Origin: Eggerthellaceae bacterium
Lineage (GTDB): Bacteria > Actinomycetota > Coriobacteriia > Coriobacteriales > Eggerthellaceae
Assembly (NCBI GenBank): GCA_017511465.1
Contig: JAFWJU010000103.1
Span: forward strand, 1 to 34,081
Reading direction: 5' to 3'
Length of the DNA stretch: 34,081 bases
In this document: piece by piece, positions 15,464 through 24,267 of the stretch
How positions within the stretch are numbered: the first letter of the stretch is position 1
Layout: every line of letters begins with the position of its first letter
The notes under the pieces: generated by a model
What the model was told of the DNA's origin: nothing
Seen by the model: only the letters and a program-made list of their open reading frames with translations
Databases searched by the model: none
Translations under genes and position numbers: made by a program

Positions 15464-16099
15464 TTAGTTCTGGTAGAACAGCACGATGCGCTCGGCAGCC
15501 GCGCCGGCATCGGGCGTGTACGCATCGGCGCCGATCTCATCGGCGAATTCCTGGTTGACAGGAGCGCCGCCGACCATGATCTTCACCTGGTCGCGAAGGC
15601 CAGCCTCGGTGATGGCCTTGACAGTCTCGTCGAGGGCCGGCATGGTGGTGGTAAGCAGGGCGGACAGGCACACGACCTTGCACTCGGGATGCTCGGTGAT
15701 GTACTGCACGAATGCCTCGGGGGCAACGTCGACGCCCAGGTCGGCGATCTCGACGCCCTTGCTCTCGATCATCATGCGAACGAGGTTCTTGCCGATGTCA
15801 TGCATGTCGCCCTTGACGGTGCCGATGACGGCATGGCCGACAGGCTCGTTGCCTTCGGCGACCAGCACGGGTTTCAGCACAGCCGTGCCAGCGGACATGG
15901 CGCGCGCTGCAACGAGCATTTCGGGAACGAACGCCTCGCCCCTCGAGAAAGCCTCGCCAATGACGCCCATCGCGTCGACCATGACGTCGAGGATTTCCTG
16001 CGGATCGCAGCCCTCGTCGAGCGCCTGCTGGACGAGCGGACCGGTTTCCTTCCTCTTGCCCTTCATTACCTTCTCGCGCAGATCTTCAAGTGTTCCCAT
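15464..16099 (-). CDS. Corrinoid (cobalamin-binding) methyl-carrier protein
   Basis: The 211-residue product matches the MtbC/MttC/MtgC-type methyltransferase corrinoid subunits (about 210). An N-terminal helical cap domain (about 1-85) is followed by a Rossmann B12-binding domain. The cobalt-ligating histidine is His100 in GDMHDIGKNLV, with CLSALLTTTM and KIMVGGAPVN completing the B12 site. ATG 16099 is chosen because AAAGGGG lies five bases upstream; an earlier in-frame ATG would start inside the promoter. In the family a substrate methyltransferase methylates Co(I) on this protein and a second enzyme moves the methyl to tetrahydrofolate. Here the second enzyme, the 20573-21382 product, is in the same cluster, but no substrate methyltransferase is. 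The gene has its own promoter and terminator. Confidence 0.92.
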   Translation of the reverse strand: MGTLEDLREKVMKGKRKETGPLVQQALDEGCDPQEILDVMVDAMGVIGEAFSRGEAFVPEMLVAARAMSAGTAVLKPVLVAEGNEPVGHAVIGTVKGDMHDIGKNLVRMMIESKGVEIADLGVDVAPEAFVQYITEHPECKVVCLSALLTTTMPALDETVKAITEAGLRDQVKIMVGGAPVNQEFADEIGADAYTPDAGAAAERIVLFYQN

Positions 16100-16141
16100 G
16101 GTTGCCCCTTTCATGAGCCTGGTAACGCCTCGGTATTCACT

Positions 16142-16178
16142 ATGGTCATAAAATATCTTTATCACCATGTCGAGTCAA
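16142..16178 (-). promoter_or_regulatory. Promoter with overlapping dyad for the corrinoid gene
   Basis: On the minus strand TTGACT (plus 16173-16178), 17 bases, then TATTTT (plus 16150-16155) form a good sigma70-type promoter about 50 bases before the start codon. An inverted repeat with 11-base arms and one mismatch, atggtcataaa (16142-16152) and tttatcaccat (16158-16168), covers the spacer and -10, the position expected of a repressor operator. Confidence 0.65.
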
Positions 16179-16245
16179 GGGAAAACCAGCGGTTATCGCT
16201 TTTTCTGATTACCTGCTTATGACGTTGGAACGCGTGCTTGCAGCG

Positions 16246-18261
16246 TCACTCATCGAATCCGATGCGCGCAATGACCGTCCATTCGCGGTCGACTTCGAAA
16301 ATGGCAGTTGCACGGTACACTTTGCGGTTTTCCTCGATATCGCATTGCAGGTCGCCTTCGGCCCCACGCTTGCGGGCTTCCTCCCGGGCAAGGGCGCCCG
16401 CTTGCTCGCGTGCCGCCGCCAATGCTTCGTCCAAGTGATCGTATGTATCGGCGGAACCCGCGCCGCGCAATTTGTAGCCCTGCACCACGCCATCCGAGCC
16501 GCGCAACGGGTTAATGTAAACGCGCTGTTCGACCGAAATGCGCGAGACAGCGGCACCAACCGCATTGGCAACGGGTGCATGCTGCGGCACGACGCAAGGA
16601 GCAGACATCATATCGGCCACCGCGGGAAGGAACACATGCGTCGGCGCGCCCACCCCCACGAGCGCCGCGTTGCTGTCGAAACGCACGTCGAATGGCGGCC
16701 GTTGTTCGTCAGAGCGGCTTTCCCACACGCGTTTGGCCATGGCGCTCATCTGGCTGTCGAAGCCCACTTCGCTTTCGGGCCAGAAGCGGTCTTGCGCGAA
16801 CACGCCCAGCACCTGCGAGAAAAGCCTGAACTGTGCAAGGTCGTAAATCTCGTCGGCAATGGCAGCGATGACCTCGTCGTCGACTGCCGCAGCAGAACCC
16901 TTATAGGACTTCAGCAGGCATTGCGCGCCAAGCCGTGACGCCTGCGTGTCGAACTCGCAGAAGTCGCCTTTGATATGCATGGCATCGGTCGGCGTCATGC
17001 CGCATCGCATGACGATGCCCTCGTCCTCGAGTCGGTCGGTTTTCAAACCCAGGATGTACATGCGGTCGTCGTGCAAAGCCACGGGACCATCGTGCAGAAG
17101 CTCGATGAGCTGTTGCTCGGTCTGGTTGAAACGCGACACGTCGCCTGGATCCCGCAGCAAGTACAGCAACTCGTAGCGTGCGTGGAAATCGATTCCCGGC
17201 AATGCAAGGTAGCGCTCGAGCGTTTTTATGACCTGCGGCCAGCGTTGTGCTGCGATGCACAACGGGGTTACGCGACGCGTTCCCAATTCCAGCTTGCTAC
17301 TTTTGGCGAAGCGAACCTGCGTGTCGCCGCCGAGTGCAATAGTGTCGATTTTCACACCCGCAACCTGCGTCTTCCAACCGCCGATCATGATGCCGTCGGT
17401 GCGGTTGGCCCGCCCGGCGTGCACGATCGAGATATCCGAAGTCGTGCCGCCGATATCCACGATCAAGCTTTCGGTTTGACCGGCAAGCGCGCGGGCGCCC
17501 GTAACCGAAGCGGCGGGCCCAGACAGAATTGTCTCGACGGGACGCAAGCGCGCAAGTTCTTCGGACATGAGCGTGCCGTCGCTGCGCACGATGGCAAGCG
17601 GGATGTCGAGGCCACGCGCGGCAAACGCCGCGTTCACGGCATTGAGGAACTCGTCGATAACGGGCACGAGCCGTGCATTGAGCAGCGCTGTCGCGCCTCG
17701 TCCGATGACGTTGGGCTCGACGGCGACCTCGGTGGACTCTACGACGAGCTTGCCGAACTTCTCGCGTAGCCACGCCGCGCCGCTCTTCTCGACAACCGAC
17801 CCGTTGTTCAACGCATACAGGCTGGCGATGCCGAACGAATCTGCTTCGTCGAAAAACGCGGGGTTGGCATCGTAAAGCGCATCCCAATCGGGAATCTCGA
17901 CATCGTTGCCGTCGTACGACCCCACGAACGGAAGCGTGATGACGTCGGCATATGAAATGCCGAACTTGCCCTGGGCGTCCACGCGATGCAAAAGCTCATC
18001 GGTCGCCCCCACGAGGACGAGCTTGGCGCGCCCGCCCTTGCCCTCGACGCAGGCGTTCGTGGCGAGCGTGGTGGAAAGGGCCGCATGTTCGGCAAGCGCC
18101 AGCACGTCGCGGGGCAGCGCGTCGATGGCGTTGCCGATACCGCGCGTCAGGTCGTCTTTCGTCGTGAGGGCCTTGGCATGCGCTAGCACCTCGACGCTAT
18201 CGACGTCGACGACGACCGCATCGGTAAACGTGCCTCCCGTGTCGATCCCAAGTCGTATCAA
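16246..18261 (-). CDS. HyuA/oxoprolinase-like ASKHA ATPase of the corrinoid cluster
   Basis: The 671-residue product resembles hydantoinase A/oxoprolinase subunits. It has an N-terminal phosphate-binding loop (LGIDTGGTFTDAVV, about residues 4-17), STTLATNAC near 80, and a second ASKHA motif IVDIGGTTSDISIV near 285. A TTG start at 18261 is preferred because GAAGGAG sits six bases upstream and the frame then opens directly on the conserved loop; the alternative at 18294 would begin inside a palindrome. Known relatives hydrolyse hydantoins, 5-oxoproline or carboxylate acetone using ATP. No HyuB partner is present, and the neighbours are corrinoid methyl-transfer genes. An accessory ATPase acting on the corrinoid protein or on an amide/lactam substrate is therefore inferred rather than hydantoinase activity. 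Confidence 0.75.
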   Translation of the reverse strand: MIRLGIDTGGTFTDAVVVDVDSVEVLAHAKALTTKDDLTRGIGNAIDALPRDVLALAEHAALSTTLATNACVEGKGGRAKLVLVGATDELLHRVDAQGKFGISYADVITLPFVGSYDGNDVEIPDWDALYDANPAFFDEADSFGIASLYALNNGSVVEKSGAAWLREKFGKLVVESTEVAVEPNVIGRGATALLNARLVPVIDEFLNAVNAAFAARGLDIPLAIVRSDGTLMSEELARLRPVETILSGPAASVTGARALAGQTESLIVDIGGTTSDISIVHAGRANRTDGIMIGGWKTQVAGVKIDTIALGGDTQVRFAKSSKLELGTRRVTPLCIAAQRWPQVIKTLERYLALPGIDFHARYELLYLLRDPGDVSRFNQTEQQLIELLHDGPVALHDDRMYILGLKTDRLEDEGIVMRCGMTPTDAMHIKGDFCEFDTQASRLGAQCLLKSYKGSAAAVDDEVIAAIADEIYDLAQFRLFSQVLGVFAQDRFWPESEVGFDSQMSAMAKRVWESRSDEQRPPFDVRFDSNAALVGVGAPTHVFLPAVADMMSAPCVVPQHAPVANAVGAAVSRISVEQRVYINPLRGSDGVVQGYKLRGAGSADTYDHLDEALAAAREQAGALAREEARKRGAEGDLQCDIEENRKVYRATAIFEVDREWTVIARIGFDE

Positions 18262-18283
18262 CTGCAGCTCCTTCAAAAGCAAG

Positions 18284-18322
18284 CTAATAACCAATTGGGG
18301 ACTGTCCCCAATTGGTTATTAG
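18284..18322. repeat. 39-bp perfect palindrome, possible REP-like element
   Basis: Arms ctaataaccaattggggac (18284-18302) and its exact complement (18304-18322) flank a single T at 18303. It overlaps the stop codon of the DUF2284 gene and ends 22 bases before the HyuA-like start. The design (long perfect arms, one central T) matches the palindrome at 3084-3112 although the bases differ. It may fold in mRNA between two operon genes. Confidence 0.8.
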
Positions 18323-18852
18323 TACAACACGCAACCAGAGTAGGCGATGGTCAGAGGGCCGTGGTTGTAGGGAATGCCGGCCAACGTGCAGACCTCCGAC
18401 ACGACCAGGCCGGCGGCTTCCATCGAGACGAGCTGCTTGTCGGGGAACCGGCATGGCTCGTCGGGATACGAGCACGTCGAGCACAGCGTGCACGTGCCCG
18501 CCGTGAACGTCTTGGTCGTAGCGCCATACCCGGCTTCATCGAGAGCCTGGGTTAAGCTGATCATGCGCTCCTTGGCAAGCTCGCTCGCCTCGCCCATCGT
18601 TTCGATGTCGAACTCGTCTTCGAGTTCGGCGATGGTTTGCACGACCAGGCAATGGTCAAACTCGTGCATGAGCCGCTCGAAATCCTCGATATCGCCGCAC
18701 GCAGGCGGACACGCCCAGCTGCGTCCGTACACCCTGCATTTATCGACCGAGCACATGGCGCGCACTTCCGGACGTGCCACAAGCTTCTTCGCATCGCATG
18801 TTCCCATGCACTCGAAACCTTGTTTGGCTGCCAGTTCCTCAATCGCGTTCAT
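18319..18852 (-). CDS. Cysteine-rich metal-binding protein (DUF2284)
   Basis: The 177-residue product has 13 cysteines in the arrangement of DUF2284 proteins. A first block is MCSVDKCRVYGRSWACPPACG (spanning about 34-54), and a second is GTCTLCSTCSYPDEPCRFP (about 119-137). The spacing suggests one or two Fe-S clusters or bound metals, but function in the family is unknown. It starts at ATG 18852 with GGGGGA five bases upstream. It lies 41 bases after the RACo-like gene and 57 before the HyuA-like gene, inside the corrinoid cluster. A role in electron delivery to the reductive activator or in corrinoid handling is inferred. The protein ends in GCVLY; its stop codon falls within a 39-bp palindrome. 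Confidence 0.85.
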   Translation of the reverse strand: MNAIEELAAKQGFECMGTCDAKKLVARPEVRAMCSVDKCRVYGRSWACPPACGDIEDFERLMHEFDHCLVVQTIAELEDEFDIETMGEASELAKERMISLTQALDEAGYGATTKTFTAGTCTLCSTCSYPDEPCRFPDKQLVSMEAAGLVVSEVCTLAGIPYNHGPLTIAYSGCVLY

Positions 18853-18893
18853 TCATGTCCCCCGTCTCACCCAACATGAAGCCTTGCCGATAC

Positions 18894-20396
18894 CTATTCG
18901 AATTCCATCATCTCGATGTAGAACGAGTTGAACGTTGCCGACGTCGAAAGCTCGAGGTAGTCGCACTTGTCGACGATTTCAGCTTCGCGACTGCGCCCCG
19001 CACTCGACACGAGCAACGCGGTGGCGCCTTCGCCCGACGTGTTGCCCACACTCGAAGCGCACGGCAACAGCTCTTCGGGGAACAACCCGATTTCAGCGGC
19101 GGATTTCAAGTTCAAAAACGCCCCGAACCCGCCGGCGATCTCGAGCGATTCGATATCCGAAACGTCCTTGCCAGTGGCGTCAAGCAACGTGTAGATGCCC
19201 GCGCACACGGCAGCCTTGGCCAGCTGCAAGTTGCGCACATCGTCTTGCGTAATGTAGACAGATTTGTCGTCGGTCAGGTAAAACACGTTGCGGTCGTCTT
19301 CGCAGCCCACGAGTGAAACGAAATCGTCGTCCACTTCATCGTCGTCGAGCAGGTAGCCCGTCTCGTCCACGATGCCCAAGCGCACCATGAGCGCTACCGC
19401 GTCGATGAGGCCCGTGCCGCACAGGCCGACGGGCTCGACATCGCCCAGCACCTGCGTCTTAACCTTCCCGTCTTCGAAATACACCTTGGAAATGGCACCC
19501 GCAGACGCCGGCATGCCGAAGCGCACGTTTGCGCCTTCGAACACAGGGCCCGCCGCTGTGGCGCAACATGCGATGCGCCCATTGGCGGCAAGTGCCATTT
19601 CGCCGTTCGTGCCCAAATCGATGAACAGACGCGTGCCGCCGGCGTCGATTTCGCGCGCGAGCATGCCCGCGGCGATATCGCCGCCAACGTACCCTGCGAT
19701 GCATCGTGCGAACCTGCACGTGCCAAGGCCCTCGATTACATGCTCATCGCCGAACAGCGACAACGGGGTGAATGGGTTCACGCCGATGGTGTCGGGCGGC
19801 AACCCCACGGCAATGTGCTGCATGACCGTGTTGCCGGCAATGGCGACGCGTGTCACGTCGTCGGGCGATATCCGCGCCCGCTTGCACAGTTTCGCCTTCA
19901 TCTCGCGCATGGCGTCTTGAACAGCAGTCGTCATCAAATCGAGCTTGCCATCGACGCTTGCCGAGATGCGGCTGATCACGTCGCTGCCGAATGCGATTTG
20001 AGGATTCGAGCGACCGACGGTGGCAAGCCGTTCGCCACTTGCCAGATCGTGAAGGTGCGCCACGAGCGTGGTCGTGCCGATATCGATGGCCATTCCGTAA
20101 CCGCTCGCACCCTCATCGGGCGGGAATGCGCGCGTTGTTCCGCTTTGGACGACATCGATGGCGCCAACGGCCTCGACCACGACTTCCATGCCGTCGGATA
20201 CAGGCGTTTTGCATGCCAGGCGGTAGCTTAAACCCTTATCGTCACGCACGAGCACTTGGCATCGGCGGCACGTGCCCACGCCACCGCATGTCGCATGGAT
20301 GTCGATGCGCTGCTCTTGCAGCACGTCGAGAACCGAACGCGGCTCGGCCACGTCAACGACCATTCGCTTGCCAGCGTCGTCTATGGTCAATCTCAC
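18894..20396 (-). CDS. Reductive activator of corrinoid proteins (RACo-like, Fe-S + ASKHA)
   Basis: Family members use ATP and a low-potential electron to reduce inactive Co(II) corrinoid proteins back to Co(I). The 500-residue product starts with a [2Fe-2S] ferredoxin domain: Cys37, Cys43, Cys46 (ATCGGVGTCRRC) and Cys62 (RLAC). It continues with a long DUF4445/ASKHA ATPase region: AIDIGTTTLVAHL near 105-117, IAGNTVMQH near 190, FIDLGTNGEMAL near 260 and SLEIAGGFGAFLN near 440. A GTG start at 20396 is used; GGTG about seven bases upstream is a weak ribosome site. It is shorter than the roughly 640-residue acetogen RACo, lacking much of the linker domain. It is 176 bases after the methyltransferase gene and probably serves the 15464-16099 corrinoid protein. 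Confidence 0.88.
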   Translation of the reverse strand: MRLTIDDAGKRMVVDVAEPRSVLDVLQEQRIDIHATCGGVGTCRRCQVLVRDDKGLSYRLACKTPVSDGMEVVVEAVGAIDVVQSGTTRAFPPDEGASGYGMAIDIGTTTLVAHLHDLASGERLATVGRSNPQIAFGSDVISRISASVDGKLDLMTTAVQDAMREMKAKLCKRARISPDDVTRVAIAGNTVMQHIAVGLPPDTIGVNPFTPLSLFGDEHVIEGLGTCRFARCIAGYVGGDIAAGMLAREIDAGGTRLFIDLGTNGEMALAANGRIACCATAAGPVFEGANVRFGMPASAGAISKVYFEDGKVKTQVLGDVEPVGLCGTGLIDAVALMVRLGIVDETGYLLDDDEVDDDFVSLVGCEDDRNVFYLTDDKSVYITQDDVRNLQLAKAAVCAGIYTLLDATGKDVSDIESLEIAGGFGAFLNLKSAAEIGLFPEELLPCASSVGNTSGEGATALLVSSAGRSREAEIVDKCDYLELSTSATFNSFYIEMMEFE

Positions 20397-20525
20397 GGTC
20401 TATCACCGCCTCGTCGGGAATCGTCATCCCCAGGCATCGTCATTCGCCTTTAAACCACTACCCTCCATGAATGAGCCACGGAGCGAACCCCCTAAAACCC
20501 ATCCACTCAAATCGCTCTTATACAA

Positions 20526-20553
20526 GGCGGCGGACAACCAAGTGCCCGCCGCC
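20526..20553 (-). terminator. GC-rich hairpin between methyltransferase and RACo genes
   Basis: ggcggcgg (20526-20533) and ccgccgcc (20546-20553) form a perfect 8-bp stem. On the minus strand it follows the methyltransferase stop by 19 bases and is followed by TTGTATAA. It may partly terminate transcription before the RACo-like gene. The rest of the 176-base gap shows nothing recognisable. Confidence 0.55.
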
Positions 20554-20572
20554 GACAAGGTAAGACTTCGCG

Positions 20573-21382
20573 CTAATCGCGATTCAGCGGGCCAAACAGG
20601 TTATCGCGATACGCCTCGATGTAGTCAAGGCAGTACTCGTCCTCGCCGAGCAGCGCCTCGGCGCCGTGCAGCACGCCGTTCATGTCGCGGTTCGCCGGGT
20701 CCATGATGGCGCTGTCCATGCCGGCGTTCATTGCCAAAACCAAGAACGGCATGTTGATGAACTTGCGGCCAGGCAAGCCGAACGAAATGTTGGACAGGCC
20801 AGACGTGATGTGAATCGTCGGATACGCTTCCTTGATGCGCTCGCAGCATTCGTTGAACACGAGCATGCTCTCGGGATTGGCGCCGAGCGTCTCGACGAGC
20901 GGGTCGATGTACAGGCGATTGGGCGCGATGCCGTATTCCTTGGCGCGCTCCATGATGGCCTCGAACACCTTAATGCGGTCATCGGCCGTTTTCGGAATGC
21001 CCGTGTCGTCGGACAGCAGCGCGACGCAACCCCACTTGGTGTCGGCGATGGCGGGAAACACGACGTCGATTTTGTTGCCCTCGCCCGATACCGAGTTGAT
21101 GATGCCCACGCGGCCGTCGCAGAACTTCATGGCGTCGACGCACACCTGGGGATCGGGGCTGTCGATGCAAATGGGAAGGTCAGACTCTTCCTTGACGATG
21201 TTGATGAGCCATTCCATGACCTCGAGTTCGCCTTCGTTCACCGATGCGCAGCAGTCGATGTAATCGGCACCGGCTTCCGTCTGCATGCGTGCCAGCTGAC
21301 GGATGTACTCCTCATCCTTGGCGGCGATGGCAGCGCCGGTTTTGGGGATGGAACCGTTGATTTTTTCGCCGATGATAATCAC
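20573..21382 (-). CDS. Methyltetrahydrofolate:corrinoid methyltransferase (MeTr/MtgA family)
   Basis: The 269-residue pterin-binding TIM barrel matches MeTr/AcsE and MtgA enzymes (260-290 residues), which move a methyl group between tetrahydrofolate and a corrinoid protein. GTG 21382 is chosen because a near-perfect AAGGAGG lies six bases upstream and translation begins with the conserved IIIGEKING. Folate-site residues known from AcsE are recognisable: Asp in ICIDSPDP, Asn in GIINSVSGEGNK, Asp in YIDPLVETLG and Asn in SGLSNISFGLP. It leads the corrinoid cluster. The acetyl-CoA-pathway CFeSP partner is absent, and the nearby single corrinoid protein argues for a demethylation or methyl-donor pathway rather than AcsE proper, though this is inferred. 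Confidence 0.9.
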   Translation of the reverse strand: MIIIGEKINGSIPKTGAAIAAKDEEYIRQLARMQTEAGADYIDCCASVNEGELEVMEWLINIVKEESDLPICIDSPDPQVCVDAMKFCDGRVGIINSVSGEGNKIDVVFPAIADTKWGCVALLSDDTGIPKTADDRIKVFEAIMERAKEYGIAPNRLYIDPLVETLGANPESMLVFNECCERIKEAYPTIHITSGLSNISFGLPGRKFINMPFLVLAMNAGMDSAIMDPANRDMNGVLHGAEALLGEDEYCLDYIEAYRDNLFGPLNRD

Positions 21383-22048: not shown

Positions 22049-24061
22049 TTATTTCCTTTCATGAGCCGCGATGGCGGCGTCCACCAAGGCTTTGAACAGG
22101 CGCTTGGAATGCGGGCGCGTGCGCCACATGTGCTCGGGATGCCACTGCACGCCGACCACGAAGCTTGCGGACGGAAGCTCGATTCCCTCGATGACGCCGT
22201 CATCGGGTGATACGGCGCTCACCACCAATCCCTCGCCAAGCTTGTCCACGCTTTGGTGGTGGATGGTGTTCACACCCAGGCGCGTGGCGCCGACGCACGA
22301 GGCCAAAAGGCTGTCCTCGACGACATCGACCATATGAGCGGGCATGTCGAACGGCCGCCCCTGAACATGCTGCAACGCCAATTCCTCATGGTCGGCGCGA
22401 ATGTCCTGATGCAGCGTGCCGCCCAAGGCAACATTAAGCGACTGCATGCCGCGGCAGATTCCCAGAATGGGCTTGTCGGCCGCAATCGCCGCTTTCACGA
22501 GCGCTTGCTCCATAGCATCACGGGCCGAAGCCGATCGGTGCGTGCCCGGCTTGCGCTGCGCGCCGTACCATGTGGGATCGATGTCTTGCCCGCCGGGAAT
22601 GAGGAATCCGTCACATGCGGCGACGAGCCGCTTGATATGCGCGGGGTCGCTTGTCGTGGGAAGGACGATGGGAACGGCGCCCGTCTCGAGTAAGCCCGAA
22701 AGGTACCCATCGGAAATGGCAAGCCCCGTCCATTCGAAATCATAACGGGGTACCACGCCGATGACCGGTGCAGCAGGCGAGCCAGCTGGCATCATCGTGC
22801 GCTTTTCCATCATGCGCGGCCATATTTCGGCCAACGTGAAGCGGTAACGCACCATCGACGAGAGCGGCTCGAGGTAAATCCACTCGTCTAACTCGATGGA
22901 ACCCGATGCCAGCACCATCAGCATGTCTGCCCAGAAATCGACGGGGCGCCCGTAAATCTGGGCACCGTAGCCTTTTTCCATGAGGGCCTCTTTCGCCGCG
23001 CGCACCTCGTCTTCGCCAACGGATGCGAGCAGCGATTCCAGCACGCCGAGATTGCGGTCACTGTAGAACAGGGCGCTGATGAGCACCGCGTAAGCCAGGC
23101 AGTATTCGAAGGGCATCGCGTCTGATGGGCGGATTTCCACGAAGTTCTTCAAGCGGGCGTCGGGCCACACCATCGACAGCGCGTGCTCGAGCTCGGCACG
23201 CGTCATCTCGCGGTCGGCGTACACCTCGTCAAACGTCTGATTAGCCACATAACGCCAACCGCCCTCGGCATTTTCGTCGGGCACGAGCACGGCTTCGCGC
23301 GTCAGGATGTAATCAGCGTAGTCCGCAAACGAGAAATCGGGGGCCAACGACCCGGGAATCGTGCCGACGCGGTCTTGCTTCATGCCGGACCATATGGCCG
23401 TGCGGACGATATTCACCTTGCGTTCCTCGCCTTCGAAAATAGGAGAGTTGTCGCAGATGAGCGCTAATATCGGCGCAATAATCTCGGCAATGCGCAGCTT
23501 TCGCAAGGCGTCTTGCTCGTCTCGGTAATCGATTGAGATCTGCAAGCTGCCCGTACCGCGCATCATGCAGATGCCATCGTATGCCTGGGCGCCGAGGAAT
23601 CGCGTCATGCATTCGTAACGGTACTTCGGAACCAGCTTCAGGTCCTTGGCGCACGCAGAGGGGTTGTACCCGAGCATGGGCGTCTCGAGGCCGAACTCCT
23701 CGAGGATCGGATCGAGCTCGCTGCGGAACTTCAAGTACGCTTCCTCGATTTCCTGCACCTTGCGGAACGGGCCTGCCGATATCTCGAGTTGAGCCGCGGG
23801 TTCGATGGAAATGACCGCGCCTTCGCGGGAAAGCCCGATGATGTTGTCGCCTTCGTAATGCCGATGCTCGTAATACGGCGCCAGCCTTTCGAGCACGTCG
23901 TGCACGCCACCCGGCTCGTCATACGACACGGGTGCATTCGTGCCCTTGTGCAACAGGATGTGCTCGAGCTCGAAACCAAGCGCGCGCGAGCGCTTGTCTC
24001 CGCTCTTGAACAGGGCGATGAGATGCTTGCGGTTGAGTACGTTAAATGCGGTTTTGTCCAT
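22049..24061 (-). CDS. Fusion: plant-type glutamate-cysteine ligase domain + class I amidotransferase-like gamma-glutamyl hydrolase
   Basis: The 670-residue product starts at ATG 24061, with AAAGGGG six bases upstream. Residues 1-430 resemble the GCS2/EgtA family: LGFELEHILL near 23-32, GLSREGAVISIEPAAQLEIS near 78-97, TGSLQISIDYRDE near 170 and NFVEIRPSDAMPFEY near 310. Residues about 438-665 are a peptidase C26/PuuD-type domain with IPGGQDIDPTWYG, nucleophile Cys536 (GICRGMQ) and the His641-Glu643 pair (QWHPEH), so the triad looks complete. The first domain's relatives make gamma-glutamylcysteine; the second domain's relatives cleave gamma-glutamyl amides. Having both in one chain is unusual. 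It may remodel gamma-glutamyl compounds or supply ammonia or glutamate between sites. Glutathione synthetase is not adjacent. Confidence 0.8.
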   Translation of the reverse strand: MDKTAFNVLNRKHLIALFKSGDKRSRALGFELEHILLHKGTNAPVSYDEPGGVHDVLERLAPYYEHRHYEGDNIIGLSREGAVISIEPAAQLEISAGPFRKVQEIEEAYLKFRSELDPILEEFGLETPMLGYNPSACAKDLKLVPKYRYECMTRFLGAQAYDGICMMRGTGSLQISIDYRDEQDALRKLRIAEIIAPILALICDNSPIFEGEERKVNIVRTAIWSGMKQDRVGTIPGSLAPDFSFADYADYILTREAVLVPDENAEGGWRYVANQTFDEVYADREMTRAELEHALSMVWPDARLKNFVEIRPSDAMPFEYCLAYAVLISALFYSDRNLGVLESLLASVGEDEVRAAKEALMEKGYGAQIYGRPVDFWADMLMVLASGSIELDEWIYLEPLSSMVRYRFTLAEIWPRMMEKRTMMPAGSPAAPVIGVVPRYDFEWTGLAISDGYLSGLLETGAVPIVLPTTSDPAHIKRLVAACDGFLIPGGQDIDPTWYGAQRKPGTHRSASARDAMEQALVKAAIAADKPILGICRGMQSLNVALGGTLHQDIRADHEELALQHVQGRPFDMPAHMVDVVEDSLLASCVGATRLGVNTIHHQSVDKLGEGLVVSAVSPDDGVIEGIELPSASFVVGVQWHPEHMWRTRPHSKRLFKALVDAAIAAHERK

Positions 24062-24267
24062 AGGACGCCCCTTTGCGGGTTGCGTATGGCAGTTTTCGTT
24101 ATCTATTGTACCGAACGCCAAACGCTTGTGGTTCGCCGTCAAATCGTTGGCCTGCTATCTGCGATACCGAACGCTACGATCGAAATGCGACGAGTGCCTG
24201 AAGCCGATTTAAGCATTTTATTATGGAACGAATAAACGATGAGCATTGCCTTTATCAGCATGCCCGA

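What the first reader, a model, noticed from the sequence alone, without database searches (positions are those of the whole stretch)
15464..21382. Corrinoid methyl-transfer cluster with two ASKHA ATPases and no substrate methyltransferase
Methyl-THF methyltransferase, RACo-like activator, DUF2284, HyuA-like protein and corrinoid carrier lie together, but no MttB-, MtaB- or UroD-type gene that would demethylate a substrate is present. Either the substrate enzyme is encoded elsewhere and several share this module, or the HyuA-like protein takes part in an unrecognised methyl-transfer reaction. DUF2284 with 13 cysteines is a candidate electron donor to the activator. The combination of HyuA-like and RACo-like ATPases around one corrinoid protein is the best candidate here for an undescribed system.
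Basis: partly seen in the sequence, partly recalled or inferred. Interest (0 to 1): 0.72.

Follow-up and report, generated by a model that had tools for sequence, protein, structure and literature searches.

The report
Methyl-transfer operon with extra ATPase
This rumen bacterium carries a vitamin-B12-dependent machine that moves methyl groups onto folate; the enzyme that strips the methyl from its food molecule is not missing but sits elsewhere in the genome (next to the machine in close relatives), while an extra HyuA-like ATPase, found beside B12 proteins across bacteria and archaea, has no known job.

Summary
The five genes are real, on the minus strand of an Eggerthellaceae MAG contig: MeTr, RACo-type activator, DUF2284, HyuA-like protein (HYU), corrinoid protein. 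The contig holds no substrate methyltransferase, but the reading 'no substrate methyltransferase' is refuted. The same genome has a UroD-superfamily enzyme beside a PucR regulator on another contig (C73). Its orthologs (76-89% identical) lie next to this cluster in three congeners, a paralogous UroD lies there in five, and in another genus that UroD is fused to the corrinoid protein. A non-pyrrolysine MttB on C48 may share the module. One congener has MeTr-RACo-DUF2284-corrinoid-UroD without HYU, so HYU is accessory. HYU is a HyuA/acetone-carboxylase-beta-fold ASKHA protein with intact ATP motifs and no HyuB found. It recurs beside corrinoid proteins with MttB, UroD or methanogen partners on several separate branches, and in Eggerthellaceae every genus with HYU has this corrinoid protein. 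A 668-aa 'unknown' of the same annotation is known in a glycine-betaine cluster. DUF2284 adjoins 17 of 20 Eggerthellaceae RACo genes, with or without HYU, and has two invariant four-cysteine groups. Best reading: a known four-component demethylase plus an Fe-S partner of RACo and an ATPase that probably services the corrinoid protein (inferred, untested).

The parts
20573..21382 (-). MeTr: methyl-tetrahydrofolate:corrinoid protein methyltransferase (MT-II), GTG start at 21382 after AAGGAGGT
   Evidence: Pterin_bind 75 bits; NCBIfam PRK07535 334 bits over cut-off 259; start site; IDS/NSVS/IDP/GLSN motifs
18894..20396 (-). RACo-type ATP-dependent reductive activator of corrinoid protein, 500 aa, N-terminal [2Fe-2S] cysteines C37, C43, C46, C62 and ASKHA motifs
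   Evidence: RACo_C_ter 234 bits, Raco_middle 139 bits; matches solved RACo 3zyy and 4c1n; motifs; only RACo gene found in the genome
18319..18852 (-). DUF2284 cysteine-rich protein, 177 aa, two four-cysteine groups (C34/C39/C48/C52 and C121/C124/C127/C134) plus C155; probable Fe-S partner of RACo
   Evidence: PF10050 149 bits; cysteine conservation in 25 homologs and adjacency to 17 of 20 Eggerthellaceae RACo genes
16246..18261 (-). HYU: stand-alone HyuA-like ASKHA ATPase, 671 aa, TTG start
   Evidence: Hydantoinase_A and Hydant_A_N; DTGGTFTD, TTLATNACVE, DIGGTTSD, GVGAP motifs; AlphaFold model pLDDT 91.4 matches acetone carboxylase beta, Z 25.6 over 535 residues
15464..16102 (-). COR: methyl-carrying corrinoid protein, MtgC-like, 212 aa, DMHDIG cobalamin motif
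   Evidence: B12-binding 85 bits and B12-binding_2 66 bits; motif; the only stand-alone corrinoid protein found in the genome

Best explanation
A corrinoid-dependent methyltransferase system of the known four-component kind. A UroD-superfamily MT-I takes a methyl group from an unidentified methylated substrate and puts it on the Co(I) corrinoid protein (COR). MeTr moves it to tetrahydrofolate. When the corrinoid is oxidised to Co(II), RACo reduces it again using ATP. In this genome the MT-I gene is on another contig (C73:63292-64350, beside a PucR-type regulator), and the MttB on C48 may use the same COR/MeTr/RACo. DUF2284, with two four-cysteine groups, probably carries two Fe-S clusters and hands electrons to RACo. 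HYU is not the demethylase; it is an accessory ASKHA ATPase that most likely acts on the shared corrinoid protein (repair, cofactor loading or release, or priming for reduction). Shown here: gene identities, conserved order, UroD linkage and fusion, HYU fold and motifs, recurrent HYU-corrinoid association. Inferred: methyl-flow direction, substrate, DUF2284 electron transfer, HYU's action.
For: Gene identities. Conserved METR-RACO-DUF2284-HYU-COR order in the genus, followed by PucR, a GPH-type MFS transporter and UroD in relatives. Own-genome UroD and divergent PucR on C73; it is 89% identical to the cluster-adjacent UroD of G120/G121 and 76% to that of G114. UroD-COR gene fusion in G037 whose UroD half is 55-58% identical to the main cluster-adjacent UroD. 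G114 has METR-RACO-DUF2284-COR-UroD without HYU. In Eggerthellaceae, COR loci carry either METR or an HxCG-type UroD as acceptor enzyme, rarely both (1 of 37). HYU lies with COR/METR/RACO/MttB/UroD in 26 of 80 named loci on several separated branches, including Methanomassiliicoccales. HYU genomes also have this COR: 18 of 20 in the family, the other two having HYU at or near a contig end, and 5 of 5 genera, p = 1.5e-4 by genus. Published: a 668-aa unknown annotated as hydantoinase A/oxoprolinase sits in the glycine-betaine cluster of strain DCMF and is far more abundant on glycine betaine (PMC9768040).
Against: HYU homologs also occur without any recognised corrinoid gene nearby (54 of 80 loci, mainly Rhizobiales and gut Clostridia), so the family may have a wider or different role. 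Twelve Eggerthellaceae genomes have this COR without HYU. No HYU-COR complex was modelled. The C73 UroD scores far below the MtaA/CmuA cut-off and lacks the HxC zinc motif, so its methyltransferase activity rests on linkage and fusion. Relatedness inflates the genome-level statistics; 13 of the 20 HYU genomes are one genus. The MAG is 90% complete.
Confidence: 0.6

Rival explanations
1. HYU is a small-molecule phosphotransferase, as its fold relatives (acetone carboxylase beta, caprolactamase alpha) are: it activates the substrate, the demethylated product, or a C1 unit with ATP, and does not touch the corrinoid protein.
For: Whole-length match to acetone carboxylase beta and caprolactamase alpha; the HyuA motif TTxATNAxxE and both phosphate loops are kept; members occur far from corrinoid genes.
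Against: The same HYU family goes with UroD, MttB and methanogen-type partners that handle different substrates; no HyuB-like partner seen among 41 neighbours or window genes; module without HYU exists in G114.
Confidence: 0.2
2. The module's main partner in this organism is not a demethylase but methionine synthesis: the stand-alone homocysteine methyltransferase (C108) takes the methyl from COR, so COR, MeTr and that enzyme form a split methionine synthase, perhaps fed by UroD or MttB too.
For: Only stand-alone COR and no MetH-sized B12 protein found; no MetE match; homocysteine methyltransferase domain on C108; a carrier shared between glycine betaine demethylation and methionine synthesis is known in roseobacters (PMC12478193); no CdhD match, so no acetyl-CoA synthase outlet seen.
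Against: Operon order links to UroD, PucR and transporter in relatives, not to methionine genes; the C108 gene sits beside unrelated genes; MAG is 90% complete, so MetH or MetE may be missing from the assembly; auxotrophy is possible.
Confidence: 0.25
3. HYU is a second reductive activator that replaces or backs up RACo.
For: Some HYU-MttB-MeTr operons carry no RACo nearby (L058, L091, L110, L115); ASKHA activators of other enzymes are among the fold matches.
Against: No Fe-S domain was recognised in HYU by Pfam or NCBIfam; many loci have both RACo and HYU (L064, L065, L072, L076, L100, L118, L122); DUF2284 follows RACo, not HYU.
Confidence: 0.1
4. HYU is an ordinary hydantoinase/oxoprolinase subunit inserted in the operon by chance.
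For: Family-level annotation as Hydantoinase_A; stand-alone loci exist.
Against: No HyuB among the window ORFs scanned and none listed among the leading families of 41 neighbours; only positions 1-145 of 291 of the Hydantoinase_A model match; repeated corrinoid linkage in separate lineages.
Confidence: 0.07

Closest known systems
Four-component corrinoid O-demethylase / CdmBCA-type systems of acetogens (UroD-superfamily MT-I, corrinoid protein, MT-II, activating enzyme)
   Same: UroD-superfamily MT-I, MtgC-like corrinoid protein, folate MT-II and RACo-type activator (PMC13222342)
   Different: MT-I gene is on another contig here; UroD has HHDDWG and HH(S/N)D signatures and scores far below MtaA/CmuA; adds DUF2284 and HYU; no acetyl-CoA synthase subunit CdhD found
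Glycine-betaine MtgABC clusters with 'HydA' (strain DCMF, Sporomusa ovata)
   Same: COR, MT-II and a ~670-aa HyuA-like protein of unknown role in one cluster (PMC9768040); the Eggerthellaceae paralogous operon BCCT-COR-MttB-MttB-HYU-METR has a similar composition (L058, L059, L061)
   Different: Window cluster has no MttB or BCCT; its HYU is about 30-32% identical to the MttB-operon form; RACo and DUF2284 are inside the operon
Type 1 mlp gene clusters (Kountz and Balskus)
   Same: UroD-superfamily proteins with corrinoid protein and Ram/RACE protein; HxCG-type UroD plus COR occurs in METR-less relatives
   Different: Type 1 MGCs need at least two Mlps and no folate methyltransferase within 20 kb (PMC10418091); here MeTr is in the operon and no Mlp is adjacent
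HyuA / acetone carboxylase beta / caprolactamase alpha
   Same: Whole fold and ATP motifs
   Different: Stand-alone, no HyuB or AcxA seen; sequence similarity to solved relatives confined to about the first 331 residues

Membership tests
Four-component corrinoid methyltransferase system | Corrinoid carrier protein with DxHxxG and helical cap | tested here: met
   PF02310 and PF02607 over cut-off; DMHDIG at 99
Four-component corrinoid methyltransferase system | MT-II: methyl-THF:corrinoid methyltransferase | tested here: met
   PRK07535 334 bits over 259
Four-component corrinoid methyltransferase system | RACE/RACo reductive activator | tested here: met
   RACo_C_ter and Raco_middle over cut-off; 2Fe-2S cysteines and ASKHA motifs
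Four-component corrinoid methyltransferase system | MT-I substrate methyltransferase | tested here: inconclusive
   Not in the window; UroD on C73 and MttB on C48 of the same genome, UroD adjacent or fused in relatives; activity not testable here
MtgC glycine-betaine corrinoid protein (NCBIfam NF047996/NF047995) | Score over the curated cut-off | tested here: not met
   183.5 against 370 and 153 against 310 bits
AcsV / RamA activators | Score over NF040756 or TIGR04270 cut-off | tested here: not met
   294 against 800 and 103 against 500 bits: RACo-like, not these subfamilies
MtaA/CmuA methyltransferases (C73 UroD) | TIGR01463 cut-off and HxC zinc motif | tested here: not met
   27.7 against 235.4 bits; no HxC motif, HHND instead
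N-methylhydantoinase/oxoprolinase (HyuAB) | HyuA fold with ASKHA phosphate and adenosine motifs | tested here: met
N-methylhydantoinase/oxoprolinase (HyuAB) | HyuB partner (PF02538) | tested here: inconclusive
   None among window ORFs scanned; none among the 25 leading families of 41 flanking genes in related loci; whole genome not searched for PF02538
Caprolactamase CapA (NF050156) | Curated cut-off 1000 bits | tested here: not met
   82 bits
Type 1 mlp gene cluster | At least two Mlps and no folate methyltransferase within 20 kb | tested here: not met
   MeTr is in the operon; no UroD recognised on the contig
Split methionine synthase | Homocysteine methyltransferase acting with COR and MeTr, no MetH or MetE | tested here: inconclusive
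   Stand-alone homocysteine methyltransferase present, no MetE match, no MetH-sized B12 protein; MAG 90% complete

The most novel reading that the evidence does not exclude
The stand-alone HyuA-like family is an unrecognised, widely used ATP-dependent servicing factor for corrinoid proteins (loading, release or repair of the cobamide), working beside RACo in bacteria and methanogens; DUF2284 is a dedicated two-cluster electron donor to RACo.
Probability: 0.33. Interest if true: 0.7.

Novelty: new variant of a known kind. Interest (0 to 1): 0.45.

Why it matters
Corrinoid methyltransferases remove methyl groups from plant, dietary and osmolyte compounds in gut, rumen and sediment. A HyuA-like protein of unknown role keeps turning up in their operons, including one strongly more abundant on glycine betaine in a published proteome. 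If it services the corrinoid protein, reconstituted systems that lack it may be incomplete. The reductant of RACo-type activators is usually given only generically as ferredoxin or flavodoxin (PMC6739815); DUF2284 is a concrete candidate.

Tried and rejected
A TAG in the MttB alignment was checked: it precedes the start codon, so this MttB is not a pyrrolysine enzyme. The Pfam URO-D search of the own genome missed the C73 gene and showed only a distant one on C48; a direct protein search found it. DUF2284 structure from two sequences was unusable (pLDDT 34). No solved relative of DUF2284 or of the C73 UroD by sequence. The E-X14-E-X20-H zinc pattern that I recall for acetogen O-demethylases was not found in the cluster-adjacent UroDs (pattern from memory). 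No Rfam match in the window and no defence-family match for HYU or DUF2284. The terminator-like hairpin between DUF2284 and HYU is read as an inserted repeat, not as an operon end, because it was found only in this copy.

Full report
What is there. The window is the whole 34,081-base contig C90 of a 1.89 Mb, 129-contig, 90% complete MAG; a close relative with the same cluster is an Eggerthellaceae MAG from roe deer gut (L064). The five genes lie on the minus strand: MeTr 21382-20573, RACo 20396-18894, DUF2284 18852-18319, HYU 18261-16246, COR 16102-15464. Family scores are strong for all five. RACo has the ferredoxin cysteines C37, C43, C46, C62 and both ASKHA loops, COR has DMHDIG, HYU has DTGGTFTD, DIGGTTSD and GVGAP. 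It is the only RACo gene and the only stand-alone corrinoid protein found in the genome.

The substrate enzyme is not missing. In the genus, the order METR-RACO-DUF2284-HYU-COR is conserved, followed by a convergent PucR-type regulator and, on the far side, a GPH-type MFS transporter and a UroD-superfamily gene (L038, L039, L041, L042). In G120 and G121 a UroD-PucR pair sits beside the cluster (L044, L045). In another genus (G037, L050) the UroD is fused to COR in one 592-residue protein, with a second UroD, HYU, DUF2284 and RACo beside it on the same strand; the fused UroD half is 55-58% identical to the main cluster-adjacent UroD of the genus. In the window's own genome a UroD at C73:63292-64350 is divergent from a PucR gene and is 89% identical to the cluster-adjacent UroD of G120/G121 and 76% to that of G114. 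A non-pyrrolysine MttB lies on C48.

Two kinds of UroD. The cluster-type UroDs share HHDDWG and HH(S/N)D and lack the HxC motif at that place, whereas a second kind has HxCG. Across 37 Eggerthellaceae COR loci, METR and HxCG-UroD are nearly exclusive: 1 has both, 16 METR only, 13 HxCG only, 7 neither (Fisher p = 4e-4, not corrected for relatedness). I infer that cluster-type UroD is MT-I, and that METR and HxCG-UroD are alternative acceptor enzymes, folate or thiol.

DUF2284. 17 of 20 Eggerthellaceae RACo genes have a same-strand DUF2284 within 2.5 kb, including loci without HYU (L160, L174, L186, L187, L188). Two four-cysteine groups, C34/C39/C48/C52 and C121/C124/C127/C134, plus C155 are conserved in at least 24 of 25 homologs. 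This supports an Fe-S protein working with RACo; the structure attempt failed.

HYU. The AlphaFold model (pLDDT 91.4, pTM 0.91) matches acetone carboxylase beta (Z 25.6, 535 residues), acetophenone carboxylase alpha and caprolactamase along the whole chain, while sequence similarity to solved relatives is confined to about the first 331 residues. No HyuB was seen among the window ORFs scanned, nor in the leading families of 41 flanking genes of related loci, where DUF1638 and homocysteine methyltransferase were among the commonest hits. HYU homologs lie with COR, METR, RACo, MttB or UroD in 26 of 80 named loci, among them Bacillota, Chloroflexota, Desulfobacterota, Gammaproteobacteria and Methanomassiliicoccales. 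On the tree these contexts are scattered; 16 changes of state are needed. In Eggerthellaceae the 20 genomes with HYU include 18 with this COR; in the other two HYU lies at a contig edge (loci L040 and L046). By genus it is 5 of 5 against 5 of 43 others. G114 has the module with UroD and no HYU, with DUF2284 directly followed by COR. Hence HYU is an accessory, tied to the corrinoid part rather than to one substrate. The published strain DCMF cluster has a 668-aa protein of the same annotation, listed as unknown and strongly more abundant on glycine betaine (PMC9768040); that it is the same family is inferred from annotation, length and gene order.

Mechanism offered. UroD methylates Co(I)-COR from an unknown donor; MeTr passes the methyl to folate; RACo, probably fed by DUF2284, rescues Co(II); HYU uses ATP on COR. 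The first steps follow known four-component systems; the DUF2284 and HYU roles are inference. No acetyl-CoA synthase subunit CdhD was found, so methyl-folate probably feeds oxidation or biosynthesis. With no MetE and no MetH-sized protein found but a stand-alone homocysteine methyltransferase, COR may also serve methionine synthesis; incompleteness of the MAG limits this.

Limits. Context calls use profiles built here from window and relatives, so distant genes may be missed. Counts are not corrected for relatedness. HYU contexts without corrinoid genes (54 of 80 loci) show that the family may do more than one thing. Literature statements come from a library of open papers; absence there is not proof of novelty.

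Noticed in passing
L034:12071-13663 (own genome C48:37070-38662, minus strand): LysR-type regulator fused to an MtgC-type corrinoid-binding domain that keeps DTHDIG. Found in most genomes of the genus (61-68% identity), beside MttB and/or BCCT genes in several (L034, L156, L163, L155) and beside COR in G031/G036. A candidate methyl- or cobamide-sensing regulator; one paper search found no description.
   Followed up: partly
window 18284-18322: Long perfect inverted repeat containing CCAATTGGGGACAGTCCCCAATTGG, overlapping the DUF2284 stop codon and separating it from HYU. Its core was found only in this genome's copy among 193 fetched loci; looks like an inserted mobile repeat.
   Followed up: partly
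window 22052-24142, minus strand: Glutamate-cysteine ligase family 2 domain fused to a Peptidase_C26/class I glutamine amidotransferase domain in one protein.
   Followed up: no
L173:5116-6132 (own genome C108): Stand-alone homocysteine S-methyltransferase in a genome with no MetE match and no MetH-sized B12 protein found; possible split methionine synthase using the window's COR and MeTr.
   Followed up: partly
L050:12018-13793: UroD-corrinoid fusion protein resembling CmuA in architecture, in another Eggerthellaceae genus, with a second HxCG-type UroD next to it.
   Followed up: partly
L058, L059, L061: Second HYU paralog (about 30-32% identical) in BCCT-COR-MttB-MttB-HYU-METR operons of the same family, probable quaternary-amine demethylation.
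   Followed up: partly
L094 and other Rhizobiales loci: HYU homologs in Rhizobium stand between a cytochrome P450 and malate synthase G, with no corrinoid gene recognised nearby; role unknown.
   Followed up: no
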